A DNA stretch of 64,000 bases from Onthophagus taurus (taxonomy: Eukaryota > Arthropoda > Insecta > Coleoptera > Scarabaeidae), in contig NC_091966.1 in NCBI RefSeq assembly GCF_036711975.1, forward strand, positions 1,929,501 through 1,993,500, written 5' to 3'. Below, one piece after another: positions 9,237 to 60,983 of this stretch (its first letter is position 1; each line of letters begins with the position of its first letter). The translations under genes and the position numbers were made by a program. Below the pieces are notes generated by a model, which searched no databases, was not told where the DNA came from, and saw only the letters and a list, made by a program, of their open reading frames with translations.

Positions 9237-9575
9237 ATGTCGAACATTTTCGGAATCATTTTCGTTCTCGCTTCAATTCTTTCAACGCTGGTTTCAGCCC
9301 AATTCATCTATATGGGAAGAATTTACCCCCCAAGTTTTGGTAGATCCAGCGATAGGGAAGCAACTCCAATCATTGAAGAAGGTACAGAACCTCCGGTGAT
9401 GTTCCCAAGAGCTTTTAATAGCATCCAATTGGAACGTGTTAAAACAGTTCCAATGCCAGGGAGACAAATACCACAAAATCTACCTCAATTTCAACAAGAT
9501 TTTCAAAATTTTCCACAACCTACGAGATTTATAGGAAATAGTTTGGAATATCCGTATTTTAATGATCGATTTTAA
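9237..9575 (+). CDS. Secreted Gln/Pro/Phe-rich protein, unknown family
   Basis: A 112-residue protein that I do not recognise. Residues 1-21 (MSNIFGIIFVLASILSTLVSA) are a clear signal peptide. The mature part starts QFIYMGRIYPPSFG, has an acidic stretch IIEEGTEPP, a basic middle (ERVKTVPMPGRQ) and a Gln/Phe/Asn-rich end (NLPQFQQDFQNFPQP, FNDRF). It has no cysteines and no cuticle consensus. The gene is intronless. Its 3' two thirds and 3' flank (9366-9793) are duplicated with only a few differences at 11285-11712, on the other side of a satellite insertion. A matrix or silk-like role is possible but not shown. Confidence 0.8.
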   Translation: MSNIFGIIFVLASILSTLVSAQFIYMGRIYPPSFGRSSDREATPIIEEGTEPPVMFPRAFNSIQLERVKTVPMPGRQIPQNLPQFQQDFQNFPQPTRFIGNSLEYPYFNDRF

Positions 9576-9793
9576 TTAATATTATTATTTAGTATTATTT
9601 ATTATTAAAAAAAATTCAAAAACGATTTTTTGTTTCTATTTTACCCCAAATTTGTTTCTTATATTCTTAAAGTTTTCATAATTAAGCTGTTGAAATCGTA
9701 ACTCTTTCTTTGCTATTCTTTTAAACTCATTTATTAGGTAAGATTAGAATGTTGAAATACCCAAATTACATCTTTATTCCATTCATACCAAAA
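9366..9793. repeat. Left copy of 428-bp flank duplication
   Basis: The 3' part of the 9237 gene plus its 3' flank. It is repeated in direct orientation at 11285-11712 with only a few differences, bracketing the inserted satellite. Confidence 0.9.
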
Positions 9794-11284
9794 GCATGAT
9801 CTACTGTATATGGAAGCTTGTAACCTTTGTTATAGACTGCCCACTTGTTGGCAGCATGAGCTAGTGTATCACATAACTTCTATTCTATATCGTAGAGCCT
9901 GCCAACTTGTTGGCAGCATGAGCTATTGTAGCTCAGAACTTCTGTTCCATATCGTAAAGCATGTCAACTTGTTGGCAGCAAGAGCTACTACATCTGGATG
10001 TTTGTAACGTGCCTTATAGGTTTCTAACTTGTTGGCAGCATGAGCTATTGTATCTCAGAACTTCTGTTCTATATCGTAAAGCTTGCCAACTTGTTAGCAG
10101 TATGAGCTACTACATCTGGATGTTTGTAACGTGTCTTATAAGCTGCCAACTTGTTGGCAGCATGAGCTGTTGTATCACATAACTTCTATTTTATGCCGTA
10201 GAGCCTGCCAACTTGTTGATAGTATGAGCTATTCTACCACAGAACTTCTATTCTACATCGTAGAGCTTGCCAAGTTGTTGGCAGCATGAGGTACTTTATC
10301 TGGAAGCTTGTAGCATTGCTGATAGACTGCCAACTTGTTGGCAGCATGAGCTATTGTATCTCAGAACTTCTGTTCCATATCGTAAAGCCTGCCAATTTGT
10401 TGGCAGCATGAGCTACTACATCTGGATGTTTGTAACGTGCCTTATAGGTTTCTAACTTGTAGGCAGCATGAGCTACTACATCTCGATGTTTGTAACGTGT
10501 CTCATAAGCTGCCAACTTGTAGGCAGCATGAGCTGTTGTATCAGATAACTTCTATTTTATGTCGTAGAGCCTGCCAACTTATTGACAGTATGAGCTATTC
10601 TACCACAGAACTTCTATTCTACATAGTAGAGCTTGTCAAGTTGTTGGCAGCATGAGGTACTTTATCTGGCAGCTTGTAGCATAGCTTATAAACTGCCAAC
10701 TTGTTGGCAGCATGAGCTATTGTATCTCAGAACTTCTGGTCCATATCGTAAAGCCTGCCAACTTGTTGGCAGCATGAGCTACTACATCTGGATGTTTGTA
10801 ACGTGCCTTATAGGTTGCTACCTTGTTGGCAGCATTAGTGAAAGTAAAAATTTACAGATGTAATAGATCTGTAAGTTTGTAACTTTCCTTATAGACTGCC
10901 TAATTAATTGTGTTTTTTTTAATGGAAAAAAAGTTGTTAAATTTGTTGAAGGGTACCAAACGATGTCAAAAAGTATCAGATTTTGTTAAAAACTGTCAAA
11001 AACTGTCCAAAGAAGTTAAAAAAAGTACCTGCTAATGGGAGAATGTGTCAAAAAGTGTCAAAATTTGTCAATTAGATTATAGAAAGTTGTTCAAAGGGGT
11101 CAAAAATATCAGAAAGAACAAAAAATATATCAAGGTTGTCAAAATATGTCTTATAATACCAAGAAAAGGTTACAAGCTGTTAAAACGTTGCAAATACCAT
11201 GTCAAAATGTCATATTATGTAAACGAAAGTTTTTAAATCGGTTAAAGAGTATTGAAAGATGACGAAAATTATTATTACAAAATG
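9794..11284. repeat. Second copy of the 62/60-bp satellite and its flank
   Basis: Starts inside a monomer matching about 5290 and contains palindromic TGCCAACTTGTTGGCA-type monomers to about 10840. It then continues with the GTCAAA flank corresponding to about 6641-7088. It is shorter than the first copy by several monomers. The ATGTTTGTAACGTG and GGTACTTTATCTGG monomer types recur as in the first array. Confidence 0.88.
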
Positions 11285-11494
11285 CCAATCATTGAAGAAG
11301 GTACGGAACCTCCGGTGATGTTCCCAAGAGCTTTTAATAGCATCCAATTGGAACGTGTTAAAACAGTTCCAATGCCAGGGAGACAAATACCACAAAATCT
11401 ACCTCAATTTCAACAAGATTTTCAAAATTTTCCACAACCTACGAGTTTTATAGGAAATAGTTTGGAATATTCGTATTTTAATGATCGATTTTAA
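11252..11494 (+). pseudogene. Chimeric 3' duplicate of the 9237 gene
   Basis: The frame opens in the satellite-flank sequence (MKDDENYYYKMP) and then runs into residues 44-112 of the 9237 protein, starting at IIEEGTEPP. It has no signal peptide, no TATA box and no promoter of its own. Two residue changes relative to the parent are visible near the end (R to S in PTRFIG, P to S in EYPYF). The 3' flank to 11712 is also duplicated. It is most likely a non-functional duplication product, although an 80-codon chimeric frame is open. Confidence 0.8.
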
Positions 11495-11712
11495 TTAATA
11501 TTATTATTTAGTATTATTTATTATTAAAAAAAATTCAAAAACGATTTTTTGTTTCTATTTTACCCCAAATTTGTTTCTTATATTCTTAAAGTTTTCATAA
11601 TTAAGCTGTTGAAATCGTAACTCTTTCTTTGCTATTCTTTTAAACTCATTTATTAGGTAAGATTAGAATGTTGAAATACCCAAATTACATCTTTATTCCA
11701 TTCATACCAAAA
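11285..11712. repeat. Right copy of 428-bp flank duplication
   Basis: Direct repeat of 9366-9793. The left junction shows a CCAA overlap between the satellite flank (ATGCCAA) and the gene (CTCCAAT). Confidence 0.9.
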
Positions 11713-13199: not shown

Positions 13200-14700
13200 T
13201 TGAGCATCTTTATTTAGACACTTTAGGACTAATTTAGACTTATTTAGTAATATTTAGACTCATTTTTACAAAATTTGACGCATGTGGACTCATTTAGACA
13301 CATTTGGATATCTATGTATCTATGTATGGATACATTTGGATAACAATTTGGATAACTAGAAACTATTTCGCGATATCACGTCCAGAACCTTTCAACATCA
13401 TCTCGAACATCCCTTAATATTATCTCTAGCAGTCTTTAATAACCATCAGTAAGTTTCAGTACATCTCTCTATATCATTCTCATTATCCTGGCCTGCTTTC
13501 AATGTTAACACTCTACATATTCTTCACATTTAGACACATTTGGATAACAATTTGGTTAACCAGTAACTATTCCTCGATATCACATCCAGAACCTTTCAAC
13601 ATCATGTCAGACATCCCTCAATATTATCTCTAGCAGTCTTTAACAACCATCAGTTAGGTTCAGTACATCTCCCTATATCATTTTCATTATCCCGGCTTGT
13701 TTTCAATGTCAACCTCTACATATTCTTAACATCCTTCGATATTGGATGTTAAGACATCATCCCGAGCAGCACTCATTGCCAACTTTGATAATCATTGACA
13801 TCGTCCCGTACATTGTATCATGTAATTCATGGCATGCCTCAAAATCGTTTTAACTATTTCTAGACATATGTGTAGCATCTCGCAACATCGTCCTAACCAT
13901 ACCTCAATATCGTCCCTGGCACACCATCTCTGTAATATCAATAGTTCTGATATGTTTCAATGTCAATTCTTCTCAACCTGAACCAAACATCCTTCCATAT
14001 CATCCCCAACAACCCTTTACATATTTAAAACATTCTTCAAAATTGTTTCCGATATTCCTTAACATCAACATCACCGTGAACAGCACACAATGCCAAATAT
14101 AGGGTGAAATCCATTTCAAATATATTTTAAATAGGAATGTGTGCAAAACATAAAAAATTAAAATGTTCCGTTTCGATATATTCAGGCCAGCTCTTAATAT
14201 ACTGACTAATACTCTTCACCAACATCCTAATCATCCCTAAATATGATCATATTATATGACCATCTCTCAATAGCCTTTTTGTTACCCTCAATATAGTTTT
14301 AAAAATCTATCAAAATTGTTAGTAGCAAACATTAACATCATCTCTAGAATAGTTCAAAATCAAATCGGGGTTCCTCAACAATGTCCTGGTCATTTCTCAA
14401 TATTGTCTCTAGCACACCTCAGATCCCTTAATATTAATTCTTATATCTTTAAATATCTTCCCTGGTCATCCTTTTATGTAGTGTCTGTGTGTTTTATGCC
14501 TTGACATCATATCTGTTATCCAGCAATATAGTAAAACCGGGTCTTAGACATCCTTCTATATAGTTGCTGGTATAGTTCAAAATCGTCCCATTATTATAGA
14601 CATAATGTCTGGGATATTGTCACTGACATCCCTCAACTTCATTTTTAGTATCCTCATCATTGTCTCAGATAGCACTCTATGCTGTGACTGATATCCATCG
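13200..14700. repeat. Degenerate repeat with one 204-bp tandem duplication
   Basis: Pyrimidine-rich reiterations of words like CATCCCTCAATATTATCTCTAG. A clear tandem pair has units at about 13332-13535 and 13536-13735, both starting ACATTTGGATAACAATTTGG and carrying ATATCAC(G/A)TCCAGAACC. The rest to 14700 is an eroded array of about 50-bp phrases. Confidence 0.65.
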
Positions 14701-21093: not shown

Positions 21094-21905
21094 GGTAAGA
21101 AAAAGAAAGTGCGGTGAAACTGGGTGCAGGAGCAAGAAAGGTATTGAAGGGAAAAGAGCAAGTCTGACGAGAAACTGATAATAGAAAGGCGGAGAATAGT
21201 GACACTTACATAAAAGGCAAATGTGAAACTAGACACCGAAAAAGAAGACTGACAAGAGACATGAAAGACCAGCAATAGAAAGGAGAGAGACTAGAAAGAA
21301 ACAGTGAATGCAAAAAACAGACTGCGCAGAGAAGAGGAAGTCTTGAAGCAGACGGGTAATAAAAGAAAAAGGCTGCATAGACTGCAGAGACAAGAAGAAA
21401 ACTAGACAGAGACGAGGGTAACTGAAAACTGAGATTTTGGATCTTTTTGTAACTTTGATGTTAATATTGAAAATTGATATTAGCCCAATTTTCTCTTTTT
21501 GGTAAGAAAAAGAAAGTTAAGACTGGGTGCAGGAGCAAGAAAGGTACTGAAGGGAAAAGAGCAAGTCTGACGAGAAACTGATAATAGAAAGGCGGAGAAT
21601 AGTGACACTTACATAAAAGGCAAATGTGAAACTAGACACCGAAAAAGAAGACTGACAAGAGACATGAAAGACCAGCAATAGAAAGGAGAGAGACTAGAAA
21701 GAAACAGTGAATGCAAAAAACATACTGCGCAGAGAAGAGGAAGTCTTGAAGCAGACGGGTAGTAAAAGAAAAAGGCTGCATAGACTGCAGAGACAAGAAG
21801 AAAACTGGACAGAGACGAGGGTGACTGAAAATTGAGATTGGATCTTTCTGTAACTTTGATATTAATATTGAAAATTGATATTAGCCCAATTTTCTCTTTT
21901 TGGTA
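21094..21905. repeat. Tandem duplication of about 407 bp
   Basis: Two direct copies (21094-21500 and 21501-21905) start GGTAAGAAAAAGAAAGT and end in the same TAGCCCAATTTTCTCTTTTT. The first four fifths of each is the purine-rich repeat type and the last part is ordinary AT-rich DNA. Only a few differences separate them. Confidence 0.85.
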
Positions 21906-22670
21906 AATTTTTAGTCGTAAAAAGATCTTTTTATCGGAATATATTAAGGTGTTTTGGGAATAAATGTGGGCATATATACTTGTTTCTTCAACTTAGAAGA
22001 TAAATATAGTTTATGATTTTGATCTTATGTTAAAATTAGATCGTGTTAGCTTTAATTTAAGATAAACTATTTCTGAACTATAAAAAATAACCTAATTATT
22101 TAAAATTTGATCAGCTTATTTAATCTTGTCTTCCAAATTTTATTAAGCTATAACATTGAGCCTTAAGAAACCCATAAACTCGTAAATTTAATTGATAAGA
22201 AGTTTTAACCATCAATTCCCTCTGCCGAGTCGTTATTTCACTTGTTAACTTTAACTAAAATAGTATTGTTAAGTGAAAATGGATGAAGATAATGCAAAAA
22301 AATGATAATACTCATCAGGAATTACTCATTGAAATGCTTCTTATAATTGAAAAATTAAAAATATAGCTTGTTTTTATTATAAAATTAAATTAGGTGATTA
22401 CTTTTAGGTTCAAATTAATTATGTGTTTATCATGTGACAAATTATACAAAATAAAATTGATCTAATTAATAAATTTTATGCGTATCATTCTGTATTTTTA
22501 CACCACATTCAACTTTCACAAGTAACACACGACACCCAATTATTATTCGGTAAGGCCAAGTGACTTACCTTGTGACCACCTCTTTGTCTCATGCCTCCCG
22601 AAAAAATCGCTTAAACCGCATCGCCCGTAAGGTCATCAAGCTAACCAAAGAGTTCCGCCAAGAAATCCCC
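21906..22670. other. Noncoding spacer
   Basis: AT-rich, no repeat or gene recognised. The last about 130 bp are GC-richer and probably form the promoter of the 22763 gene. Confidence 0.4.
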
Positions 22671-23660: not shown

Positions 23661-23689
23661 CTTATTTGTATTAACACCTTTGAGATATT

Positions 23690-25468: not shown

Positions 25469-25470
25469 TA

Positions 25471-30593: not shown

Positions 30594-30834
30594 CTCAATC
30601 CCGATGCCCTCTATGGCCGTTCTTGCACCTCTTGTGTAGGTCAGGGTTCTGATGTAACACCTGACGAAGGAGCACGCCTCAAACTTCGCTTTCCATCGCC
30701 GGTATTGAAACACTTTTTCGTCCACCCAAGTGCACAAATTGTGCGTTAAAGAAAGATGAATGTTTATAACGTGACACCAAAACGAATGAAATGGATTTGG
30801 ATTAACGCATAATGTGAAGGAAAAAAAGAAAAAA

Positions 30835-30934
30835 AATTGTAACAGTTTTGAAGAATAAATCTGGGCCGAGTAGATTTATGAGTTAACACTCGTTGGATCT
30901 TACATGGATCTCGAATATGGTCAAGGATGGGAAT
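30835..30934. repeat. Left flank duplication around satellite A array 2
   Basis: Unique sequence from TTGTAACAGTTTT to GGTCAAGGATGGGAAT. It recurs in direct orientation at 35428-35499, with one indel of about 27 bp, on the far side of the satellite. Confidence 0.85.
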
Positions 30935-33900
30935 CTCCTTTAATTAAGGTTATGCAGAAAATAGAGCAAATTCAAAAAATCGCTGCGAGGTTATTTATGA
31001 AAATTAATAAATAATTTTGATGTTATATTAAAGATAAATTCCTCTTCTTCAAGAAATCGTAAAGAAATTAATATATTTATTAAATAAAATTTTGAGATAT
31101 TTTAAAAAATCCAAACATCTTCTTTAATTGAGGTTACGCTAAAAATAGAGGAATTTCAGATAAATCGCTGTTAATAAATGATTTTGATGTTATATTGAAG
31201 ACAAATTCTTCTTCTTTAAGAACTCGTGAAGAAATTAATATGTTTATTAAATGAGATTTTGAGATATGTTTAAAAATCCAAACATTTCCTTTAATTGAGG
31301 TTACGTAAAAAATAGAGCAAATTCAAAAAACCGCTGAGAGGTTATTTATGAAAATTAATAAATGATTTTGATGTTATGTTGAAGACAAATTCTTCTTCTT
31401 TAAGAACTCGTGAAGAAATTACTATGTTTATTAAATGAGATTTTGAGATATGTTTAAAAATCCAAACATTTCCTTTAATTGAGGTTGTGCAGAAAATAGA
31501 GCAAATTCAAAAAATCGCTGAGAGGTTATTTATGAAAATTAATAAATGATTTTGATGTTATATTGGAGACAAATTCTTCTTCTTTAAGAACTCGCGAAGA
31601 AATTAATATATTTATTACAGGTGATTTTGAGATATGTTTAAAAATCCAAACATCTCCATTAATTACGGTTACGTAAAAAATAGAGCAAATTCAAAAAATC
31701 GCTGAGAGGTTATTTTTGAAAATTAATAAATGATTTTGATGTTATATTGAAGACAAATTCTTCTTCTTTCAGAACTCGTGAAGAAATTAGTATATTTATT
31801 AAATGAGATTTTGAGATATGTTTAAAAATCCAAACATGTCCTTTAATTGAGGTTACGTAGAAAATAGAGCAAATTCAAAATCGCTGAGAGATTATTTATG
31901 AAGATTAATAAATAATTTTGATGCTATATTGAAGACAAATTCTTCTTCTTTAAGAACTCGTGATGAAATTAATATATTTATTAAATGAGATCTTGAGATA
32001 TGTTTAAAAATCCAAATATCTTCTTTAATTGAGGTTATGCAGAAAATAGAGTAAATTCAAAATATCGCTGAGAGGTTATTTATGAAAATTAATAAATGAT
32101 TTTGATGTTATATTGAAGATAAATTCCTCTTCTTCAAGAAATAGTGAAGAAATTTATATATTTATTAAATGAGATTTTAAGATATGTTTAAAAATCCAAA
32201 CATCTCTTTTAATTGAGGTTACGTAGAAAATAGAGCAAATTCAAAAAATCGCTTAGAGATTATTTATGAAAATTAATAAATGATTTTGATGTTATATTGA
32301 AGACATATTCTTCTTCTTTAAGAACTTGTGAAAAAATTAATATGTTTATTAAATGAGATTTTGAGATATGTTTAAAAATCCAAACATTTCCTTTAATTGA
32401 GGTTACGTGGAAAATAGAGCAAATTCAAAAAATCGCTGAGAGGTTATTTATGAAAATTAATAAATAATTTTGATGTTATATTGAAGAGAAATTCTTCTTC
32501 TTCAAGAAATAGTGAAGAAATTTATATATTTATTAAATGAGATTTTAAGATATGTTTAAAAATCCAAACATCTCCTTTAATTGAGGTTACGTAGAAATTA
32601 GAGCAAATTCAAAAAATCGCTGAGAAGTTTTTTATGAAAATAAATAACTAATTTTGATGTTATATTGAAGACAAACTGTTCTTCTTTAAGAACTTGTGAA
32701 GAAATTAATATGTTTATTAAATGAGATTTTGAGATACGTTTAAAAATCCAAACATCTCCTTTAATTGAGGTTATCCAGAAAATAGAGCAAATTCAAAAAA
32801 TCGCTGAGAGGTTATTTATGAAGATTAATAAATAATTTTGATGTTATATTGAAGACAAATTCTTCTTCTTTAAGAACTCGTGATGAAATTAATATATTTA
32901 TTAAATGAGATTTTGAGATATGTTTAAAAATCCAAACATCTTTAATTGAGGTTACGTAGAAAATAGAGGAAATTCAAAAAATCGCTGAGAGGTTATTTAT
33001 GAAGATTAATAAATAATTTTGATGTTATATTGAAGACAAATTCTTCTTCTTTAAGAACTCGTGATGAAATTAATATATTTATTAAATGAGATTTTGAGAT
33101 ATGTTTAAAAATCCAAACATCTTTAATTGAGGTTACGTAGAAAATAGAGGAAATTCAAAAAATCGCTGAGAGGTTATTTATGAAAATTAATAAATGATTT
33201 TGATGTTATATTGAAGACAAACTGTTCTTCTTTAAGAACTTGTGAAGAAATTAATATGTTTATTAAATGAGATTTTGAGATATGTTTAAAAATCCAAACA
33301 TCTCCTTTAATTGAGGTTACGTAGAAAATAGAAGAAATTAAAAAAATCGCTGAGAGGCTATTTATGAAAATTAATAAATGATTTTGATGTTATATTGAAG
33401 ACAAACTGTTCTTTTTTAAGAACTTGTGAAGAAATTAATATGTTTATTAAATGAGATTTTGAGATATGTTTAAAAATCCAAACATCTTCTTTAATTGAGG
33501 TTATACAGAAAATAGAGCAAATTCAAAAAATCGCTGAAAGGTTATTTATGAAAATTAATAAATGATTTTGATGTTATATTGAAGACAAATTCTTCTTCTT
33601 TAAGAACTCGTGAAGAAATTAATATGTTTATTAAATGAGATTTTGAGATATGTTTAAAAATCCAAACATTTCCTTTAATTGAGGTTACGTAAAAAATAGA
33701 GCAAATTCAAAAAACCGCTGAGAGGTTATTTATGAAAATTAATAAATGATTTTGATGTTATGTTGAAGACAAATTCTTCTTCTTTAAGAACTCGTGAAGA
33801 AATTAATACACTTATTAAATGAGATTTTGAGATATGTTTAATAATTCAAACATCCCCTTTAATTGAGGTTGTGCAGAAAATAGCGCAAATTCAAAAAATC

Positions 33901-34566
33901 GCTGAGAGGTTATTTATGAAAATTAATAAATAATTTTGATGTTATATCGAAGACAAATTCTTCTTCTTTAAGAACTTGTGAAGAAATTTATATATTTATT
34001 AAATGAGATTTTGAGATATATTTAAAAATCTAAACATCCCCTTTAATTGAGGTTGTGCAGAAAATAGAGCAAATTCAAAAAATCGCTGAGAGGTTATTTA
34101 TGAAAATTAATAAATAATTTTGATGTTATATTGAAGACAAATTCTTCTTCTTTAAGAACTTGTGAAGAAATTTATATATTTATTAAATGAGATTTTGAGA
34201 TATATTTAAAAATCCAAACATCCCCTTTAATTGAGGTTGTGCAGAAAATAGAGCAAATTCAAAAAATCGCTGAGAGGTTATTTATGAAGATTAATAAATA
34301 ATTTTGATGTTATATTGAAGACAAATTCTTCTTCTTTAAGAACTTGTGAAGAAATTTATATATTTATTAAATGAGATTTTGAGATATATTTAAAAATCCA
34401 AACATCCCCTTTAATTGAGGTTGTGCAGAAAATAGAGCAAATTCAAAAAATCGCTGAGAGGTTATTTATGAAGATTAATAAATAATTTTGATGTTATATT
34501 GAAGACAAATTCTTCTTCTTTAAGAACTCGTGAAAAAATTAATATGTTTATTAAATGAAATTTTGA
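30935..34566. repeat. Satellite A, array 2
   Basis: About 20 head-to-tail units of about 184 bp in the same orientation as array 1, with the consensus TTGAGGTTACGTAGAAAATA and GCAAATTCAAAAAATCGCTG. Variant-sharing blocks, such as the AAAACCGCTGAG variant at about 31328 and again at about 33713, show block-wise amplification inside the array. Confidence 0.88.
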
Positions 34567-34853
34567 GATGTAATTAGATGAATAAAATAACTTTGCTTTT
34601 GAGATGGATAAATTTTATTTCCGGCTCAACCGGTTTCTACTATTTTCAGTCATCTTCAGGAGCTTTAGCCACGTCAATTTTACTTTTAATTTTCAAAATC
34701 TGGATTCATCTTCTTATTTATAATCGTTTTCTTAAATTCTTTGTTGTTAATTATTGTCAAAAATGTCTCTAATTTTGTGTTTTATCTTCTTTTTATGTTA
34801 TTCACTACAACGGTTATTTTATTTTTATTTTTGTGAAACTAAAATAAAACAAG
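34567..34853 (-). mobile_element. Penelope-like terminal remnant in satellite A
   Basis: Non-satellite insert. Its minus strand reads CTGAAGATGACTGAAAATAG then TAGAAACCGGTT (34631-34659), the layout of a decayed hammerhead motif from Penelope-like elements. No coding remains. The flanking satellite is partly deleted, so boundaries are approximate. Confidence 0.5.
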
Positions 34854-35025
34854 AGGTTATTTATGAAAATTAATGAATAATTTTGATGTTATATTGAAGA
34901 CAAATTCTTCTTCTTTAAGAACTCGTAAAGAAATTAATACACTCATTCAATGAGATTTTGAAATATGTTTAAAAATCCAAACATCTCCTTTAATTGAGGT
35001 TGTGCAGAAAATAGAGCAAATTCAC
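34854..35025. repeat. Satellite A, array 2, last unit
   Basis: One further unit (GAGGTTATTTATGAAAATTA to GAAAATAGAGCAAATTCA) before the hairpin elements. Confidence 0.75.
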
Positions 35026-35230
35026 TATCACTAGAACTAACACAACACCTAGAACTAGAATCATTCATGTTTAGCTGTATTGAGAGACGTGCGGCTAAAT
35101 CCGAATGTTTCTAGTTCTTGGTATGGTGTTAGGTCAATTTTTTATCCCTAGAACTAACAGAAGACCTAGAACTAGAATCATTCGGGTTTAGCCGTCTTGA
35201 GAGTCTAGTGTTAGTTCCAGTAGCAGTGGT
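35026..35230. repeat. Two degenerate hairpin elements
   Basis: Imperfect fold-back copies of the CTAGAACTAACA...CATTCG(G/T)GTTTAGCCG motif, related to the clean hairpin at 35276. The arms are about 45-48 bp with several mismatches. Confidence 0.6.
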
Positions 35231-35275
35231 AAGTAGTGCTAGTTAACATAAGATATTACTATATTACATATTTTT

Positions 35276-35407
35276 ATTGCACTAAAACTAGAACTAACAC
35301 TAGACCAAGAACTAGAAACATTCGTGTTTAGCCGTCTTAAGACACGCACTGCTAAACACGAATGTTTCTAGTTCTTGATCTAGTGTTAGTTCTAGTTTTA
35401 GTGCAAT
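35276..35407. repeat. Near-perfect hairpin element (132 bp)
   Basis: 56-bp arms (35276-35331 and 35352-35407), starting ATTGCACTAAAACTAGAACT, are complementary with a single mismatch around a 20-bp loop (CCGTCTTAAGACACGCACTG). It is a fold-back MITE-like unit. The arms' similarity implies recent origin or gene conversion. Confidence 0.8.
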
Positions 35408-35427
35408 AAAATAATGCAACTCGAAAA

Positions 35428-39111: not shown

Positions 39112-39195
39112 CCGCTTGAGTAGGTTTAGGTGGCGAAAAATTATTTTATACTTTTTGAGTAATTGCTGATTAAGTTGACTCGATATTGCATCAAC
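39112..39195. repeat. Left flank duplication around satellite B
   Basis: CCGCTTGAGTAGGTTTAGGTGGC ... GATATTGCATCAA recurs at 43028-43083 (CCGCTTGAGTAGATTTAAG ... GATATTGCATCAA) with an internal deletion. Confidence 0.75.
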
Positions 39196-42100
39196 TATCA
39201 AAATGACGCTGCTTTTAGTGGTGAGTTCAAAAATTGATTTCTAAGCTATGAGTAAAATTGGATTAATGAAATTTGGGGTATTAATTTAGAATTCCTCAAT
39301 AATTTATATGGTGAAAACCGTCTTTTGATACCTCGATTCGTTTTTAAGAAATTAATTGTTAAAGATTATCTAAAAATTACCAATTTACATTGAGACCCTC
39401 GTTTAGTGTTGAGTTCAAATATTTATTTCTAAGCTATGAATAAAATTGGAAGAACGAAATTTGGGGTGTTAATTTAGAATTCGCCAATAATTTATATGGT
39501 GAAACCCATTTTTTGATATCTTGATTCGTTTCGTTGATATTAATTGTGAAAGATAACCTAAAATTATCAATCTACATTGACACCCTAGTTTAGTGTTGAG
39601 TTCAAAAATGTATTTGTAAGGTATGAGTAAAATTGGAAGAATGAAATTTGGGGTATTAATTTAGAATTCCTTAATAATTTATATGGTGAAAACCGTTTTT
39701 GATAACTCGATTCGTTTTTTAGACATTAATTGTTAAAGATAATCTAAAAATTACCAATTTACATTGACATCCTCGTTTAGTGTTGAGTTTAAAAATGTAT
39801 TTCTAAGGTATGAGTAAAATTGGAAGAATGAAATTTGGGGTATTAATTTAGAATTCCTTAATAATTTATATGGTGAAAACCGTTTTTGATAACTCGATTC
39901 GTTTTTTAGACATTAATTGTTAAAGATAATCTAAAAATTACCAATTTACATTGACATCCTCGTTTAGTGTTGAGTTTAAAAATGTATTTCTAAGGTATGA
40001 GTAAAATTGGAAGAATGAAATTTGGGGTATTAATTTAGAATTCCTTAATAATTTATATGGTGAAAACCGTTTTTGATAACTCGATTCGTTTTTTAGACAT
40101 TAATTGTTAAAGATAATCTAAAAATTACCAATTTACATTGACATCCTCGTTTAGTGTTGAGTTTAAAAATGTATTTCTAAGGTATGAGTAAAATTGGAAG
40201 AATGAAATTTGGGGTATTAATTTAGAATTCCTTAATAATTTATATGGTGAAAACCGTTTTTGATAACTCGATTCGTTTTTTAGACATTAATTGTTAAAGA
40301 TAATCTAAAAATTACCAATTTACATTGACATCCTCGTTTAGTGTTGAGTTTAAAAATGTATTTCTAAGGTATGAGTAAAATTGGAAGAATGAAATTTGGG
40401 GTATTAATTTAGAATTCCTTAATAATTTATATGGTGAAAACCGTTTTTTGATACCTCGATTCGTTTTTGAGATATTAATTGTTAAAGATAATCTAAAAAT
40501 TATCAATTTACATTGACACCCTCGTTTAGTGTTGAGTTCAAAAATTGATCTCTAAGCTATGAGTAAAATTGGAAGAATTAAATTTAGGGTGTTAATTTAG
40601 AATTCTCCATTAATTTATATGGTGAAAACCATTTTTTGATATCTCGATTCCTTTTTAAGATATTAATTGTTAAAGATAACCTAAAATTATCAATTTACAT
40701 TGACACCCTCGTTTAGTGTTGAGTTCAAAAATGTATATCTAAGGTAGGAGTAAAATTGGAAGAATGAAATTTGGGGTATTAATTTAGAATTTTTCAATAA
40801 TTTATATGGTGAAAACCGTCTTTTGATACCTCGATTCATTTTTAAGACATTAATTGTTAAAGATAATCTAAAAATTACCAATTTACATTGACATCCTCGT
40901 TTAGTGTTGAGTTCAAAAATTGATCTCTAAGCTATGAGTAAAATTGGAAGAATTAAATTTGGGGTGTCAATTTAGAATTCCCCATTAATTTATATAGTGA
41001 AAACCATTTTTTGATATCTCGATTCGTTTTTGAGATATTAATTGTTAAAGATAACCTAAAATTACCAATTTACACTGACACCCTCGTTTAGTGTTGAGTT
41101 CAAAAATGTATTTCTAAGGTATGAGTAAAATTGGAAGAATAAAATTTGGAGTATTAATCTAAAATTCCCCAATAATTTATATGGTAAAAACCATTTTTTG
41201 ATATCTCGATCCGTTTTTGAGAAATTAATTGTTAAATTGAACCTAAAAATATTCAAAATGACGCTCTTGTTAGTGGTTAGTTAAAAATTTTATTTCTAAA
41301 TTATGAGTAAAAGTAGAATAATGAAATTTGGGGTATTAATGTAGAATTCCCCAATAATTTATATGGTGAAAACCATTTTTTGATATCTCGATTCGTATTT
41401 GAGAAATTAATTGTTAAAGAGAACCTAAAAAAAATATCGATTTACATTGACACCTCTTTTAGTGTTGAGTTGAAAAATGTATTTCTAAGGTATGAATGAA
41501 ATTGGAAGAATATGGAAGAAAATATTGTTTAATCTCAATTAAACAATATTTTCTATTAAATTTTTCTTTTTATTTTTTACTTTTTTTAATAAGGTCTGTA
41601 TGCAAATTAACAAACGTTACTGACCAGTCATAGCTCGCACCGCATAATTGTGTAATCCACACCGCGCACAATTATGCGACCTACATTAACTACTTTAAAA
41701 GACTTGATTATTGTTATGTTAGCATATAAGAATTTGTATATAAACATTAATTGTTAAAGATAACCTAAAATTATCAATTTACATTGACACCCTCGTTTAG
41801 TGTTGAGTTCAAAAATGTATTTCTAAGGTATGAGTAAAATTGGAAGAATGAAATGTTGGGTATTGATTTAGAATTCCCCAATCATTTATGTGGTGAAAAC
41901 CGTTTTTTGATACCTCGATTCGTTTTTAAGACATTAATTGTTAAAGATAATCTAAAAATTACCAATTTACATTGACACCCTCGTTTACTGTTGAGTTCAA
42001 AAATATATTTCTAAGGTATGAGTAAAATTGGAAGAATGAAATGTTGGGTATTGATTTAGAATTCCCCAATAATTTATGTGGTGAAAACCGTTTTTCGATA

Positions 42101-43027
42101 CCTCGATTCGTTTTTAAGACAGTAATTGTTAAAGATAATCTAAAAATTACCAATTTACATTGACACCCTCGTTTACTGTTGAGTTCAAAAATATATTTCT
42201 AAGGTATTAGTAAAATTGGAAGAATGAAATGTTGGGTATTAATTTAGAATTCCCCAATAATTTATTCGGTGAAAACCGTTTTTTGATACCTCGATTCGTT
42301 TTTAAGACATTAATTGTTAAAGATAACCTAAAATTATCAATTTACATTGACACCCTCGTTTAGTGTTGAGTTCAAAAATGTATTTCTAAGGTATGAGTAA
42401 AATTGGAAGAATGAAATTTGGAGTATTAATCTAAAATTCCCCAATAATTTATATGGTAAAAACCATTTTTTGATATCTCGATTCGTTTTTGAGAAATTAA
42501 TTGTTAAAATTAACCTATAAAAATTACCGATTTACATTAACACCTCTTTTAGTGTTGAGTTCAAAAATTCATTTCTAAGGTATGAGTGAAATTGGAAGAA
42601 TGAAATTTGGACTATTAATTTAGTATTTTCACGTAACTTTAACGGTGTAAACCGTATCTTGATATTCCGATTCGTTTTTGAGAAATTAATTGTTAAAGTT
42701 AACCTAAAAATTTACCGATTCAAAATGACACTGTTGTTAGTGGTTAGTTAAAAAGTGTATTTCTACACTATGAGTAAAAGTAGAATAATGAAATTTGGGG
42801 TATTAATGTAGAATTCCCCAATAATTTATATGGTAAAAACCATTTTTTGATATCTCGATTCTTTTTTAAGATATTAATTGTTAAAGATAACCTAAAAATT
42901 ACCAATTTACATTCTCATCCTCGTTTAGTGTTGAGTTCAAAAATGTATTTCTAAACTATGAGTGAAATTGGAAGAATGAAATTTGGAGTATTAATTTAGC
43001 ATTCCCAAATGACTTTAATGGTGAAAA
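39196..43027. repeat. Satellite B (187 bp), main array
   Basis: About 20 units with landmarks TTAGTGTTGAGTTCAAAAAT, GAGTAAAATTGGAAGAATGA, TTATATGGTGAAAACC and ATTAATTGTTAAAGATAA. The starts TGTTGAG at 39781, 39968 and 40155 give exactly 187 bp, and four successive units there are almost identical. The array is interrupted at 41515-41745 by an unrelated AT-rich insert with two perfect palindromes. Minus-strand 60-64-codon frames are repeat artefacts. Confidence 0.9.
41515..41745. other. Palindrome-bearing insert in satellite B
   Basis: Non-satellite sequence with inverted repeats AGAAAATATTGTTTAAT (41517-41533, mate 41538-41554, 4-bp loop) and CGCATAATTGTG (41641-41652, mate 41667-41678, 14-bp loop). 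No coding frame. Its identity is unknown. Confidence 0.65.
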
Positions 43028-43083
43028 CCGCTTGAGTAGATTTAAGTGGCCTTCCTGATTAATTTGACTTGATATTGCATCAA
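43028..43083. repeat. Right flank duplication around satellite B
   Basis: Direct, partly deleted copy of 39112-39195. Confidence 0.75.
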
Positions 43084-52969: not shown

Positions 52970-53567
52970 ATGTACAAGTTTGTAAGTATCAAAAATTAAC
53001 GATTATAAAACGAGGATTTTAAAATTTTTCTTTGTGTAGATTTTGGTTACTTTGGCTTTAGTGGCTACTTCTCAAGCAGCCCCGGGGGTTGTTGCTCCAG
53101 TTGTTGCACCAGCTGTTGTTACAGCTCAAAGCTCCCAATACATCGCTAGGAATTACAACACTCTTGCAGCCCCGGTTGTAGCAGCAGCACCAGTTGTAGC
53201 CGCCCCCGTTGTAAAATCAGCACCGGTCGTAGCAGCTCCCGTTCTTAAAGCAGCACCATTAGCTGCTGCACCAATTGTTAAAGCGGTTGCTCCTGCAGCT
53301 CCACTTGTTGCTCCATCTCCCTACGTAGCCCCAGCACCATATGTAGCCCAAACACCTTACCTTGCTCCATCTCCTTATGTAGCCCCATCCCCTGTTGTTG
53401 CTTCTGCTCCTTATGTATCTCCATACAACTTACCCTACACCGTCCCAGCAGCATCTCCTTACGTTTCTCCTTATGCAGCTCGTTACGTTTCTCCATACGC
53501 AGCTCCTTATTCCCTTCCTGTAGCTCCTTACACAGCTGCAGGATACGTAGCACCAGCTTACCTTTAA
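52970..53567 (+). CDS. Two-exon Ala/Pro/Tyr-rich cuticular protein
   Basis: Exon 1 is 52970-52981 (MYKF, donor GTAAGT). Exon 2 is 53040-53567 (acceptor TGTGTAG). The 179-residue product has signal peptide MYKFILVTLALVATSQA, then APGVVAPVVAPAVV. A QSSQYIARNYNTLAAPVV block resembles conserved cores of beetle A-A-P-V cuticle proteins. AAPVV(A/K) repeats follow, then a Pro/Tyr-rich end of (A/S)PYV(A/S) repeats ending YVAPAYL. Exon 2 and 940 bp from there rightwards are duplicated at 56008-56957, where this gene's copy is broken. It is convergent with the small gene whose remnant is at 53811-54002. Structural cuticle role inferred. Confidence 0.88.
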
Positions 53568-54018
53568 GCCTTATAATGTAACTACGAGGAGTTTTGAAAT
53601 CGTTTCAAATTTAGATTGATTCAATAGCCTCGATTTTTATGTTGTTCTGACTTGTACAAAGTTTGTTTATATGGATTTGAATATTGTAAAAATATGTAAA
53701 TATATAAATAAATATTTCTAAATGATTTATTTCTTTTTAATTATAAGTGTTAAACAATATTAATAATAACTTTATATAACATGTTATATTATACACGTCT
53801 TTATCCTTATTTACCACCAACCAAATTTTACAATAGTAATTGGTGTGTAAATAAATTGAGGGGTATAAAGCGAAGGATCCAAAGTGATGGGTTCCGCGAT
53901 AGTTATGGGTACTGAGTAAATAATTGATGAACTGCTTAATCCAGGTTTTGGTTCTGGAACTGGGGTTGTTGCCACAAAGTTGAGAAGAATCGCAAAAAAT
54001 GTCTAAAATATCACTTTT
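53079..54018. repeat. Left copy of 940-bp segmental duplication
   Basis: Runs from GCCCCGGGGGTTGTTGCT in exon 2 of the 52970 gene to TATCACTTTT. It recurs at 56008-56957 in direct orientation, highly similar, with satellite C between the copies. Confidence 0.9.
53811..54002 (-). pseudogene. Exon 2-only duplicate of the 56750 gene
   Basis: The minus-strand frame is open and reads TFFAILLNFVATTPVPEPKP then GLSSSSIIYSVPITIAEP, ending VKFGWW. It matches exon 2 of the gene at 56750-57005 with few substitutions. The sequence is cut in the intron at 54018 where satellite C begins, so exon 1, start codon and promoter are absent. Presumably not expressed. Confidence 0.82.
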
Positions 54019-56007
54019 GCTCCATAACATTAATGAGATACATTTGTTTCAAACAAAACCTAACTATTGGGTATTAGTGATTGTATCTTTAAAAACGTCA
54101 AACTTTAAGAAATCACTCCTACTTTATTTATAGGAATTAGCAAACGATTTTTGTATTAAACTAAAGCTTAAAGTATTTGCTTCAAGACCATATAAAGGTT
54201 TATGGTTTGCTCCATAACATTAATGAGATACATTTGTTTTAAACAAAACCTAACTATTGGGCATTAGTGATTGTATCTTTAAAAACGTCAAACTTTAAGA
54301 AATCACTCCTACTTTATTTATAGGAATTAACAAACAATTTTTGTATTAAATTAAAGCTTAAAGTATCTGCTTCAAGATTATATAAAGGTTTATGGTTTGT
54401 TTCATAACATTAATGAGATACATTTGTTTTAAACAAAACCTAACTATTGGGTATTAGTGATTGTATCTTTAAAAACGTCAAACTTTAAGAAATCACTCCT
54501 ACTTTATTTATAGCAATTAACAAACGATTTTTGTATTAAATTAAAGCTTAAAGTATCTGCTTCACGATTATATAAAGGTTTATGGTTTGCTCCATAACCT
54601 TAATGAGATACATTTGTTTTAAACAAGACCTAACTATTGGGCATTAGTGATTGTATCTTTAAAAATGTCAAATTTAAGAAATCACTCCTACTTTATTTAT
54701 AGGAATTAACAAACGATTTTTGTATTAAATTAAAGCTTAAAGTATCTGCTTCAAGATTATGTAAAGGTTTATGGTTTGCTCCATAACATTAATGAGACAC
54801 ATTTGTTTTAAACAAAACCTAACTATTGGGTATTAGTGATTGTATCTTTAAAAACGTCAAACTTTAAGAAATCACTCCTACTTTATTTATAGGAATTAAC
54901 AAACGATTTTTGTATTAAATTAAAGCTTAAAGTATCTGCTTCAAGACCATGTAAAGGTTTATGGTTTCCTCCATAACTTTAATGAGATACATTTGTTTTA
55001 AACAAAACCTAACTATTGGGTATTAGTGATTGTATCTTTAAAAACGTCAAACTTTAAGAAATCACTCCTACTTTATTTATAGGAATTAACAAACGATTTC
55101 TGTATTAAATTAAAGCTTAAAGTATCTGCTTCAAAATTATATAAAGGTTTACGGTTGCCTCCATAACATTAATGCGATACATTTGTTTTCAACAAAACCT
55201 AAAAATTGGGCATTAGTGATTGTATCTTTAGAAACGTCAAACTTTAAGAAATCACTCCTACTTTATTTATAGGAATTAACAAACAATTTTTGTATTAAAT
55301 TAAAGCTTAAAGTATCTGCTTCAAGATTATGTAAAGGTTTATGGTTTGCTTCATAACATTAATGAGATACATTTGTTTTAAACAAAACCTAACTATTGGG
55401 TATTAGTGATTGTATCTTTAAAAACGTCAAACTTTAAGAAATCACTCCTACTTTATTTATAGGAATTAACAAATCATTTTTGTATTAAATTAAAGCTTAA
55501 AGTATCTGCTTCAAGATTATGTAAAGGTTTATGGTTTGCTCCATAACATTAATGAGATACATTTGTTTTAAACAAAACCTAACTATTGGGCATTAGTGAT
55601 TGTATCTTTAAAAACGTCAAACTTTAAGAAATCACTCCTACTTTATTTATAGGAATTAGCAAACGATTTTTGTATTAAATTAAAGCTTAAAGTATCTGCT
55701 TCAAGATTATATAACGGCTTATGGTTTGCTCCATAACATTAATGAGATACATTTGTTTTAAACAAAACCTAATTATTGGGCATTAGTGATTGTATCTTTA
55801 GAAACGTCAAACTTTAAGAAATCACTCCTACTTTATTTATAGGAATTAACAAACGATTTTTGTATTAAATTAAAGCTTAAAGTATCTGCTTCAAGACCAT
55901 GTAAAGGTTTATGGTTTGCTCCGTAACATTAATGAGGTACATCATCACTAATACTAATAATAGGTAATCACTTCTACTTTATTTATAGGAATTAACAAAC
56001 GATTTTT
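54019..56007. repeat. Satellite C (190 bp), array 1
   Basis: About 10.5 head-to-tail units, with TCCATAACATTAATGAGATA at 54021 and 54211 giving the 190-bp period. Other landmarks are AAACGTCAAACTTTAAGAAA and ATCACTCCTACTTTATTTAT. Units are very similar to one another. The array lies exactly at the junction of a segmental duplication. Confidence 0.9.
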
Positions 56008-56505
56008 GCCCCAGGGGTTGTTGCTCTAGTTGTTGCACCGGCTGTTGTTACAGCTCAAAGCTCCCAATACATCGCTAGGAATTACAACACTCTTGCAGCC
56101 CCGGTTGTAGCAGCAGCAGCACCAGTTGTAGCCGCTCCCGTTGTAAAATCAGCACCGGTCGTAGCAGCTCCCGTTCTTAAAGCAGCACCATTAGCTGCTG
56201 CACCAATTGTTTGCTCCTGCAGCTCCACTTGTTGCTCTCCCTACATAGCCCCAGCACCATATGTAGCCCAAACACCATATGTAGCCCAAACACCATACTT
56301 TGCTCCATCTCCTTATGTAGCCCCATCCCCTGTTGTTGCTTCTGCTCCTTATGTATCTCCATACAACTTACCTTACACCGTCCCAGCAGCATCTCCTTAC
56401 GTTTCGCCTTATGCACCTCGTTACGTTTCTCCATACGCAGCTCCTTATTCCCTTCCTGTAGCTCCTTACACTGCTGCAGGATACGTAGCACCAGCTTACC
56501 TTTAA
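56008..56505 (+). pseudogene. Broken duplicate of the 52970 cuticle gene
   Basis: Matches exon 2 of the 52970 gene from GCCCC onward, without exon 1, signal peptide or promoter. Relative to the parent, two small deletions lie near 56209 (about 8 nt) and 56235 (about 4 nt). Together they shift and then restore the frame, turning KAVAPAAPLVAP into Cys/Ser-rich text. A duplicated VAQTPY repeat follows, and the C-terminus YVAPAYL is kept. It has no start and is presumably dead. Confidence 0.85.
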
Positions 56506-56957
56506 GCCTTATAATGTAACTACGAGGAGTTTTGAAATCGTTTCAACTTTAGATTGCTTCCACAGCCTCGACTTTTATGTTGTTCTGACTTGTACAAAGT
56601 TTGTTTATATGGATTTGAATATTGTAAAAATATGTAAATATATAAATAAATATTTCTAAATGATTTATTTCTTTTTAATTATAAGTGTTAATCAATATTA
56701 ATAATAAGTTTATATAACATAATATATACACATCTCAATCAAATCTTATTTACCACCAACCAGATTTTACAAAAGTAATTGGTGTGTAAATGAATTGAGG
56801 GGCATAAAGCGAAGGATCCAAAGTGATGGGTTCCGCGATAGTTATGGGTACTGAGTAAATAATTGATGAGCTGATTAATCCAGGTTTTGGTTCTGGAATT
56901 GGGGTTGTTGCCACAAAGTTGAGAAGAATCGCAAAAAATGTCTAAAATATCACTTTT
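56008..56957. repeat. Right copy of segmental duplication
   Basis: Direct repeat of 53079-54018. Beyond 56957 the original intron of the 56750 gene continues, showing this side holds the ancestral right boundary. Confidence 0.9.
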
Positions 56958-57073: not shown

Positions 57074-57398
57074 CTAGCTAAGATCAGATTCTGGGAGAAA
57101 ATACTGCTTATTTGGCCAGATCAAGGATAAATTACTTTTAATTTGTTGCAATATGTTTGAGATTTCTTTTTATGGTAATTCTTAATAACAAAGTTTTAAT
57201 GTTATTAATATATAAACGTTCAATTATATTTTTAATTAATAAATATTATCACGAATTTTCGAACTCTTCATTTGCAAAAACAAGGTTAATAGAAAATTGG
57301 GAAATTTGAATTGGAAAATTATTCTGATTTATATCACGTACCATTTATATACGATTGAACGTCCAAATACGTATTTTCATTAAGTGGAAAATACTCAT

Positions 57399-57500
57399 GC
57401 AATGTAGCAACGCGCATTCTAAACCAGAACTGGCACGTCCTTTTTAGAAATTCGATCTCGTGCCAAAGAATTCCTAAGAAAATCTCTTTTCACGTTTGGT
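57399..57500. repeat. Left flank duplication around satellite C array 2
   Basis: GCAATGTAGCAACG ... CTTTTTAGAAATTCG ... TAAGAAAATCT recurs, diverged, at 60611-60708. Confidence 0.65.
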
Positions 57501-57539
57501 TTAATTTAATATAACACCGTAAATGTTTATTTAAACTTT

Positions 57540-60500
57540 TTTATAACATTTATTTACTTCAAACTTTAAAAAATCATTTCTGCTTTATTTATGGGAATTA
57601 ACAAACGATTTTTATATTAAATTAAAACTTAAAATATCTATTTTAGGGCAACATAAAAATTTATGGATTGATCCATAAAATTAATGAGAAAAAGACAAAT
57701 TAAACTTCAAGAAATCATGTTTACTTTAATTGTAGGAATTAATAATTGCTTTTTATACTAAATTAAAACTTAAAGTATTTACTTCAAGACCATATAAAGT
57801 TTTATGGTTAGATCCACATAATTAAGGCGAAAAGAATTTTTTAAACGAAGCCTAACTCTTAGCTATTAATCATGACATCTTTAAAAATGCCAAACTTTAA
57901 AGAGTCATGACTACTTTAATTATAGGAATTAACAAATTATTTTTATATTAAATTAAAGCCTAAAGCATCTGCCTCAAGACCATATAAGCATTTGTTGGTT
58001 GATCTATATAATTAATGAAAAACGAATTTTTTAAATAAAACTTAACTCTATCATGATATCTTTAAAATGTTAAACTTTCAACCATCATTTCTACTTTATT
58101 TATATCAACTAACAAACGATTTTTATGTTAAATTAAAGCTTGAAGAATCTTCTTCAAAACCATGTAATGCTTTATGTTTTAGTCCATAAAATAAATGAGA
58201 TACAGTTTTTTTAAATAGAACCTAAGTATTGGTTATTCAAAATTACATCTTTAAAAACGTCAAATTTCAAGAAATCATTCTTACTTTATTTATAGGATTT
58301 AGCAACTGATTCTTGTGTTAAATTAAAGGTTAAAGTATCTGCTTCAAACTTATGTAAAGGTTTATGATTTGCTCCATAACATTAATGAGATATATTTGTT
58401 TTAAACAAAACCTAACTATTGGCGATTAGTGATTGTACCTTTAAAAACGGCAAACTTTAAAACATCACTTCTACTTTATTTATAAGAATTAGCATATAAT
58501 TTTTGTTTTAAATTAAAGTTTAAAGTATCTGCTTCAAGATTATGTACAGGTTTATGGCTTGCTCCATAACATTAATGAGATTTATTTTGAACAAAACCTA
58601 ACTATTGGATATTAGTGATTGTATCTTTAAAAACGTCAAACTTTAAGAAATCACTCCTACTTTATTTATAGGAATTAACAAACGATTTTTGTATTAATTT
58701 AAAGCTTAAAGTATCTGTTTCAAGATTATGTAAAGGTTTATGGTTTGCTCCATAACATTAATGAGACACATTTGTTTTAAACAAAACCTAACTATTGGGT
58801 ATTAGTGATTGTATCTTTAAAAACGTCAAACTTTAAAACATCACTTCTACTTTATTTATAAGAATTAGCATATAATTTTTGTATTAAATTAAAGCTTAAA
58901 GTATCTGCTTCAAGATTATGTAAAGGTTTATGGTTTGCTCCATAACATTAATGAGATACATTTGTTTTAAACAAAACCTAACTATTGGGTATTAGTGATT
59001 GTATCTTTAAAAACGTCAAACTTTAAAACATCACTTCTACTTTATTTATAAGAATTATCATATAATTTTTGTATTAAATTAAAGCTTAAAGTATCTGCTT
59101 CAAGATTATGTAAAGGTTTATGGTTTGCTCCATAACATTAATGAGACACATTTGTTTTAAACAAAACCTAACTATTGGGTATTAGTGATTGTATCTTTAA
59201 AAACGTCAAACTTTAAAACATCACTTCTACTTTATTTATAAGAATTAGCATATAATTTTTGTATTAAATTAAAGCTTAAAGTATCTGCTTCAAGATTATG
59301 TAAAGGTTTATGGTTTGCTCCATAACATTAAGGAGATACTGTTGTATTAAACAAAACCTAACTATTCGGCATTAATGATTATATCTTTAAAAATCTCAAA
59401 CTTTAAGAAATCACTCCTACTTTATTTATGGGAATTAACAAACGATTTTTGTATTAAATTAAAGCTTAAAGTATCTGCTTCAAGATTATGTAAAGGTTTA
59501 TGGTTTGCTCTATAACATTAATAAGATACATTTGTTTTAAACAAAACCTAATTATTGGGCATTAGTGATTGTATCTTTAAAAACGTCAAACTTTAAGAAA
59601 TCAGTTCTACTTTATTTATAGGAATTAGCAAACGATTTTTATATTAAATTAAAGCTTAAAGTATCTGCTTCAAGATCATGTAAAAGTTTATGGTTTGTTC
59701 CATAACGTTAAGGAGATACTGTTGTATTAAATAAAACCTAACTATTCGGCATTAATGATTGTATCTTTAAAAACGTCAAATTTTAAGAAATCACTTCTAC
59801 TTTATTTATAGGAATTAACAAACGATTTTTGTATTAAATTAAAGCTTAAAGTATCTGCTTCAAGATTATGTAAAGGTTTATGGTTTGCTCCATAACATTA
59901 AGGAGATACTTTTAAATTAAACAAACCCTAACTATTCGGCATCAGTGATTGTATCTTTAAAAACGTCAAACTTTAACAAATCAATTCTACTTTATTTAAA
60001 GGAATTAGCAAACGATTTTTGTATTAAATTAAAGCTAAAAGTATCTGCTTCAAGATCATTGAAAGGTTTATGGTTTGCTCCATAACATTAATGAGATACA
60101 TTTGTTTTAAACAAAACCTAATTATTGGGCATTAGTGATTGTATCTTTAAAAACGTCAAACTTTAAGAAATCACTCCTACTTTGTTTATAGGAATTAGCA
60201 TATAATTTTTGTATTAAATTAAAGCTTAAAGTATCAGCTTCAAGATTATGTAATGGTTTATGGTTTGCTCCATAACATTAATGAGATATATTTGTTTTAA
60301 ACAAAACCTAACTATTGGGCATTATATCTTTAAAAACGTCAAACTTTAAGAAATCACTCCTACTTTATTTATAGGAATTAACAAACGATTTTTATATTAA
60401 ATTAAAGCTAAAAGTATCTGCTTCAAGATCATGTAAAGGTTTATGGTTTGCTCCATAACATTAATGAGATACAGTTGTTTTAAACAAACCCTAATTATTT

Positions 60501-60540
60501 GTTATTAAATGCTAAACTTTAAGATCATACAAAAGTTTGT
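57540..60540. repeat. Satellite C, array 2
   Basis: About 15 units of the same 190-bp satellite as 54019-56007, same orientation. The left-most units (57540-58250) are strongly diverged and the centre is homogeneous. An AAACATCACTTCTACTTTA unit variant repeats at 58810, 59030 and 59220. Confidence 0.88.
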
Positions 60541-60983
60541 AAGTTGATTCATAAAATGTTATAAACAAAGTTTTTGTGTTATACAAGTGTTACGATCATA
60601 ACGGCACATTGCATTGCATCAACGTTCAATCTAAATCCTATCTGGACCGTTCTTTTTAGAAATTCGTTTCGCATCGTAGAATTCGTAAGAAAATCTGCTT
60701 CCACGTCTAGTAGCAGCATTAAGAATTTAACGACGTCCCAAATCTATATTTAAATTTTCTTTTAAGAACCTCTTTTAATTTCGTGCTTTTTTATATGCTT
60801 TTAAATCTACACGTGCGGAGATGAAAAAACTATAATCCAAAATGCCCATCTAAATCTCTCTTCCTTACCGCTTCCTGTTAATTTATTGACCACATGTGTC
60901 AAAAACAAACTGGAAAATTATCATGAACTCACCTTTGGAATATCAACCGGACTTTTACCGATTTTATAATTTTGTTAGGTTAG
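60541..60983. other. Noncoding spacer
   Basis: Includes the right flank duplication (60611-60708) and the upstream region of the 61057 gene. No other feature seen. Confidence 0.4.
60611..60708. repeat. Right flank duplication around satellite C array 2
   Basis: GCATTGCATCAACG ... CTTTTTAGAAATTCG ... TAAGAAAATCT, a diverged direct copy of 57399-57500. Confidence 0.65.

What the first reader, a model, noticed from the sequence alone, without database searches (positions are those of the whole stretch)
9366..60708. Five satellite arrays are each bracketed by a direct duplication of adjoining unique DNA
The same layout recurs five times with different satellites: unique segment U, array, U again. 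Pairs are 9366-9793/11285-11712, 30835-30934/35428-35499, 39112-39195/43028-43083, 53079-54018/56008-56957 and 57399-57500/60611-60708. This looks like insertion of satellite DNA with very long, variable target duplications. One simple model is replication that leaves U, copies satellite elsewhere, and re-enters upstream of its exit point (MMBIR/FoSTeS-like switching). Similarity ranges from nearly identical to strongly diverged, so the process seems to be ongoing. I know of no described system for satellite dispersal with this signature in cuticle clusters.
Basis: partly seen in the sequence, partly recalled or inferred. Interest (0 to 1): 0.82.

Follow-up and report, generated by a model that had tools for sequence, protein, structure and literature searches.

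The report
Satellite arrays inserted with target duplication
Blocks of satellite DNA in this gene-rich stretch sit between two copies of the same local sequence, as if each block had been copied from a nearby block into a site that was duplicated during repair, which would leave a readable footprint of how satellite DNA spreads.

Summary
All five flank pairs align. Four of the five flanks (U) have exactly two matches in the 290.8-Mb assembly, the two sides of their array; U3, two short blocks, gave one.

In 264 kb around the window I found two more cases. Flank duplication occurred at 6 of 38 array blocks against 7 of 780 size-matched random intervals. In 87 kb sampled elsewhere, 0 of 5 arrays tested showed it, so generality is unproven.

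New evidence on mechanism: array ends fall at varied monomer phases; 8 readable junctions (of 14) carry 1-4 bp of microhomology (simulated p = 0.002); nearest relatives of five queried arrays lie within about 16 kb; 8 of 9 neighbour pairs are co-oriented and 8 of 9 share no flanking DNA (one further pair dropped, see report).

Best reading: template switching copies a nearby array and re-enters upstream, duplicating the target. Staggered-break repair is not excluded. Similar footprints are described for rice insertions and horse telomeric-repeat insertions, so this is a new variant of a known kind. No reads or relatives were available.

The parts
9366..9793 (+). U1 left copy; contains the 3' part of the ORF 9237-9575
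   Evidence: 425/428 identical to the right copy; two matches in the assembly
9794..11284 (+). Insert 1: 61-bp-type array plus a 446-bp non-array tail, relative of 5592-7090
   Evidence: the tail has two matches in the assembly
11285..11712 (+). U1 right copy (lacks the 5' part of the ORF)
5592..7090 (+). Nearest relative of insert 1 (mid-array into non-array DNA), 87% overall, 95% in the tail
30831..30934 (+). U2 left copy
30935..35423 (+). Insert 2: 184-bp satellite array (to about 35024, with an unrelated stretch at 34577-34839) followed by a fold-back segment
35424..35499 (+). U2 right copy
39112..39194 (+). U3 left copy (two alignable blocks)
39214..43030 (+). Insert 3: 187/375-bp satellite array, interrupted at about 41512-41731
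43028..43083 (+). U3 right copy
53079..54018 (+). U4 left copy; contains most of the ORF 53043-53567 and DNA downstream of it
   Evidence: two matches in the assembly
54019..56007 (+). Insert 4: 190-bp satellite array
56008..56957 (+). U4 right copy, 93.0% identical
57398..57546 (+). U5 left copy
   Evidence: 70.4% over 159 columns
57556..60508 (+). Insert 5: 190-bp satellite array, neighbour relative of insert 4
60610..60765 (+). U5 right copy

Best explanation
Each bracketed array is one insertion that duplicated its target. During repair or restart of a broken replication fork, the growing 3' end leaves the locus at the right edge of U, pairs by 1-4 bases with a satellite array a few kb away on the same strand, copies about 1.5-5 kb, then returns by another 1-4 bases to a point about 49-940 bp upstream of where it left, so that U is copied again: U-array-U. 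Shown: two copies of locus-specific U beside arrays, array edges at varied monomer phases, short junction overlaps, nearest relatives close by and mostly co-oriented, and no shared flanks in 8 of 9 neighbour pairs. Inferred: that U duplication and array insertion were one event, that a polymerase switched templates, and the direction of copying.
For: U copies specific to the locus; enrichment over random intervals and cross-pairings; overlaps of 1, 4, 3, 1, 1, 3, 2 and 3 bp at 8 of 14 junctions, sum 18, simulated p = 0.002; nearest relatives of five queried arrays within about 16 kb; 8 of 9 neighbour pairs co-oriented, p = 0.02; 8 of 9 share no flank within 600 bp.
Against: The tail of insert 1 differs from its only relative at about 22 of 451 columns while U1 differs at 3 of 428 (Fisher p = 1.4e-4), which a single event from that donor does not predict. 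U identity does not correlate significantly with array-neighbour identity over seven events (rho 0.5, p = 0.25; one of the seven array values is a rough estimate). Most blocks in the 264 kb lack a bracket, and 0 of 5 arrays sampled elsewhere have one. Overlaps were read by eye at a chosen 8 of 14 junctions. Neighbour pairs are not fully independent, and concerted evolution could also make neighbours alike.
Confidence: 0.5

Rival explanations
1. Staggered break repair: nicks on opposite strands about 49-940 bp apart open the site, the overhangs are filled in (which duplicates U), and a piece of satellite DNA, linear or circular, is joined in by end joining.
For: Same product; horse telomeric-repeat insertions with direct target duplication are explained this way (PMC7215372); rice insertions with tandem duplications likewise (review PMC7407515). 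Microhomology of 1-4 bp also suits end joining.
Against: Captured fragments or circles should come in either orientation and from anywhere; 8 of 9 neighbour pairs are co-oriented and the nearest relatives are local. The difference rests on few pairs.
Confidence: 0.27
2. Two-step history: U was duplicated in tandem, or an array was already present, and the present layout arose by later array growth, gene conversion or unequal exchange among neighbours.
For: U1 is far less diverged than the tail of insert 1; tandem duplications without insert exist in the window (13329-13732, 21094-21906); neighbour arrays could be alike through exchange.
Against: U1 and U4 abut their inserts directly, with no satellite unit after the right copy that I could see; 8 of 9 neighbour pairs share no flanks.
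Confidence: 0.12
3. Assembly artefact: two haplotypes with and without the array were joined, so U appears twice.
For: Possible for U1 (99.3%) and U6 (48/49); no reads were available to check.
Against: U2, U4, U5 and U7 differ by 7-30%, too much for haplotypes of one locus in my judgement.
Confidence: 0.05
4. The arrays are parts of transposable elements and U are element ends.
For: Satellites inside Helitron-like elements are described in other animals (PMC12692304, passages).
Against: U1, U2, U4 and U5 have no copies elsewhere in the assembly; U differ from event to event; U1 and U4 contain ORF ends; array edges lie at varied phases.
Confidence: 0.03

Closest known systems
Insertions with tandem duplication in rice, 'patch-mediated' break repair (Vaughn and Bennetzen 2014; not held; seen as summarised in the review PMC7407515)
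   Same: Insertion accompanied by direct duplication of the target; break repair invoked
   Different: The review gives insertions of 10-1000 bp; here inserts are about 1.5-5 kb and mostly satellite array
Interstitial telomeric repeat insertions in horse (PMC7215372; passages and section 2.5 seen)
   Same: A tandem repeat appears in one step at a break; some loci have direct duplication of the target
   Different: There the repeat is thought to be made by telomerase or from its RNA, and empty orthologous sites were compared; here the repeat looks copied from a neighbouring array and no empty site was available
MMBIR / FoSTeS template switching (passage in PMC7407515; otherwise recalled)
   Same: Microhomology of a few bases at switches; re-entry upstream duplicates DNA
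   Different: Known mostly from disease and cancer rearrangements; a role in local satellite spread is my inference
Satellite array junctions in molluscs (PMC5139131, passages)
   Same: Abrupt array edges at scattered monomer positions for most satellites
   Different: In the passages seen, long direct duplications around arrays are not reported

Membership tests
Insertion with target duplication at a break | Direct repeats of locus-specific DNA on both sides of the insert | tested here: met
   seven events including two outside the window
Insertion with target duplication at a break | Empty site with a single U in a relative or another allele | not testable with these tools
   the genome has no relatives in the collection
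MMBIR / FoSTeS template switching | Microhomology of a few bases at both joins | tested here: met
   1-4 bp at the 8 of 14 junctions that could be read
MMBIR / FoSTeS template switching | Insert copied from an identifiable template elsewhere | tested here: inconclusive
   nearest relatives are neighbours, but the tail of insert 1 is more diverged from its relative than U1 copies are from each other
MMBIR / FoSTeS template switching | Dependence on replication and its helicase or polymerases | not testable with these tools
   needs an experiment
Transposable element carrying satellites | Flanks repeated at many loci with fixed ends | tested here: not met
   four of five U have two matches only, U3 one; varied array phases
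Segmental duplication of array plus flanks | Neighbour arrays share DNA beyond the array on matching sides | tested here: not met
   8 of 9 neighbour pairs share none within 600 bp; exception 5260/9793 on the right; one further pair was dropped (-64630/-61712 window-relative), whose flanks are duplicated

The most novel reading that the evidence does not exclude
In this genome, replication-linked template switching between nearby loci is a main route by which satellites multiply locally in gene-rich DNA: each jump copies a neighbouring array in the same orientation and leaves a duplicated stretch of host DNA that marks and could date it, so that satellite neighbourhoods are lineages of such jumps.
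Probability: 0.33. Interest if true: 0.8.

Novelty: new variant of a known kind. Interest (0 to 1): 0.62.

Why it matters
How satellite arrays reach gene-rich DNA is an open question, often answered with circles or transposons. A duplicated target gives each insertion a boundary, a possible age and a predicted empty site, so the route becomes testable genome-wide. The layout also suggests why such insertions are tolerated: at U1 and U4 the left copy keeps the ORF whole and only the right copy is truncated (my reading, no transcripts were seen).

Tried and rejected
Transposon ends and LTR-like flanks: rejected for four of five U by copy counts and because U1 and U4 contain ORF ends. Segmental duplication of array plus flanks: rejected for 8 of 9 neighbour pairs. 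A clock in which U identity follows array-neighbour identity: not significant (the values were entered by hand, and the array value for U5, 0.80, is a rough estimate). A fixed entry phase in the monomer: not seen. The pair at -91775/-85357 (window-relative; 578 columns, 70%) brackets an array at offsets 332 and 386 and is one of the 7 of 26, but it may be a diverged gene duplication and I do not count it among the seven events. Species identification through a telomerase domain found nothing, in this genome or in the 14 controls. Eight literature searches listed no paper that, by title, start of abstract or passages opened, describes long target duplications around satellite arrays; the library lacks most subscription papers, so this does not show absence in print.

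Details to weigh: one search tested 38 of 39 blocks of 300 bp or more. One search used 36 merged blocks. Junction overlaps were read by eye at 8 of 14 junctions: both of U1, U4 and U6, the left one of U2 and the right one of U3; the right one of U2, the left one of U3 and those of U5 and U7 were left out as degraded, with filler, or not scored. For the satellite inserts the neighbouring monomers of the same array stood in for the donor. In one search I dropped one neighbour pair before counting (-64630/-61712, window-relative, co-oriented, 92%) because its flanks are duplicated as well; with it the counts are 9 of 10 co-oriented and 8 of 10 without shared flanks. Two short arrays of under 300 bp in the C2 and C3 samples were not tested.
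Full report
SETTING. The window is C1:1929501-1993500 of a 290.8-Mb assembly in 33 contigs. Several ORFs are short and alanine/valine-rich with signal-like starts. Of seven ORFs scanned against Pfam, two match Retinin_C, one GIY-YIG, one reverse transcriptase plus RNase H, and three nothing, among them the ORFs touched by U1 and U4. 'Cuticle' and 'insect' are my reading of these ORFs; the species was not identified (one search failed). In the 264 kb formed by the window and 100 kb on each side, 40% is array or array-like.

OBSERVATION. All five pairs are real: U1 425/428, U4 93.0%, U2 92.1% over 63 bp plus 19 bp exact, U5 70.4% over 159 columns, U3 as blocks of 23 and 32 bp at about 91%. Searches of the assembly gave exactly two places for U1, U2, U4 and U5, the two flanks, and one for U3; the tool skips very common words.

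CHANCE. Of 38 testable blocks, 6 have a direct repeat with both copies within 150 bp of the edges, against 7 of 780 random intervals of the same sizes (p = 9e-6). Two of the six are weak or purine-rich, and U1, U2 and U3 are not in this strict class. In 36 merged blocks, left against right flank beat the 99th percentile of 1260 cross-pairings 7 times and the maximum 6 times. Of 26 low-copy direct-repeat pairs at 0.3-9 kb, 7 span mostly array, against 5.7% of random intervals; of 11 inverted pairs, 0.

MORE CASES. Window-relative: U6, 48/49 bp, 77125-77173 and 82287-82335, around a 5.1-kb array; U7, 63 bp at 78%, 113319-113381 and 117764-117826. With the five given, that makes seven events. In 80 kb from C2 and C3, 0 of 4 arrays tested had brackets, nor had the one array fetched at C1:2.78 Mb. 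Recurrent here; genome-wide frequency unknown.

JOINS. Insert 1 enters with one shared base and leaves with four; insert 4 with three and one; insert 6 with one and three; insert 2 enters with two; insert 3 leaves with three (read). The sum of 18 bp over eight junctions is reached by random joins in 0.2% of trials. Array edges take many monomer phases, so a fixed recognised end is unlikely.

SOURCE. Pieces of five arrays were searched in the assembly; only the best candidates are scored. By score, the best matches are the array itself and neighbours within about 16 kb. The next locus over most of the query stands at 81% (190-bp family, C1:2.78 Mb; neighbour 94%), 77% (184-bp, C5; neighbour 93%), 75% (U6 family; neighbour 95%), 76% (375-bp family; neighbour only 80%, so a small gap) and 81% (61-bp family; neighbour 95%); shorter pieces elsewhere reach 85%. 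Of nine neighbour pairs, eight are co-oriented (p = 0.02) and eight share nothing within 600 bp beyond the array. A tenth pair was dropped because its flanks are duplicated. The exception, 5260/9793, shares 450 bp on the right: insert 1 begins mid-array and runs on into non-array DNA, so what is copied there is a stretch of nearby DNA that is mostly satellite.

MECHANISM. One-step insertion with target duplication fits best. Template switching predicts local, same-strand sources and short overlaps, as seen. A widely staggered break with captured DNA predicts the same product without preference for orientation or distance. The preference rests on nine pairs that are not fully independent, and exchange between neighbours could add to it.

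AGAINST. The tail of insert 1 differs from its only relative at about 22 of 451 columns, U1 at 3 of 428, all three inside the ORF part. Either the direct donor is gone or was another allele, or the U1 copies were homogenised, or the array predates the U duplication. U identity and array-neighbour identity do not correlate significantly over seven events. Most blocks lack a bracket; age or another route may explain them.

KNOWN AND NEW. A review, read in passages, describes tandem duplications with insertions attributed to break repair in rice, and MMBIR switches at 2-5 bp of microhomology (PMC7407515). Horse telomeric-repeat insertions include direct target duplications attributed to staggered breaks (PMC7215372, passages and section 2.5). 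In two reviews of satellite dispersal the words 'flanking' and 'target site' do not occur in the main text (PMC12692304; PMC10048060; passages seen). I call this a new variant of a known kind: repair footprints as a route for local satellite spread.

VERDICT. Observation confirmed; interpretation partly supported; simultaneity, mechanism and generality unproven.

Noticed in passing
23663-28662: One 184-bp array seems to be split by two insertions: 25471-26136 with inverted ends (25493-25561/26024-26096), the array phase resuming where it stopped, and 26200-27220 with 37-bp inverted repeats, a GIY-YIG ORF and about 12 bp of array repeated at its edges.
   Followed up: partly
35023-35419: A fold-back segment (35264-35419 matches its own reverse complement at 86%) sits between the 184-bp array and the right copy of U2.
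   Followed up: no
13329-13732 and 21094-21906: Plain tandem duplications of about 200 bp (89%) and 406 bp (96%) without an insert.
   Followed up: no
L018-L020, window-relative 102380 to 121545: A repeated segment lies between successive arrays in alternating orientation (102380, 108514, 112128, 119219 and 121391).
   Followed up: no
9386, 9527 and 9552: The three differences between the U1 copies all lie in the ORF part; the non-coding part is identical.
   Followed up: partly
L003-L030: Array density differs sharply: 40% around the window on C1, 24% in the C2 sample and 3% in the C3 sample, with slightly different definitions.
   Followed up: no
G000 contigs C1 and C3: Contig lengths are round multiples of 40 kb (44,240,000 and 30,320,000), unlike C2.
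   Followed up: no
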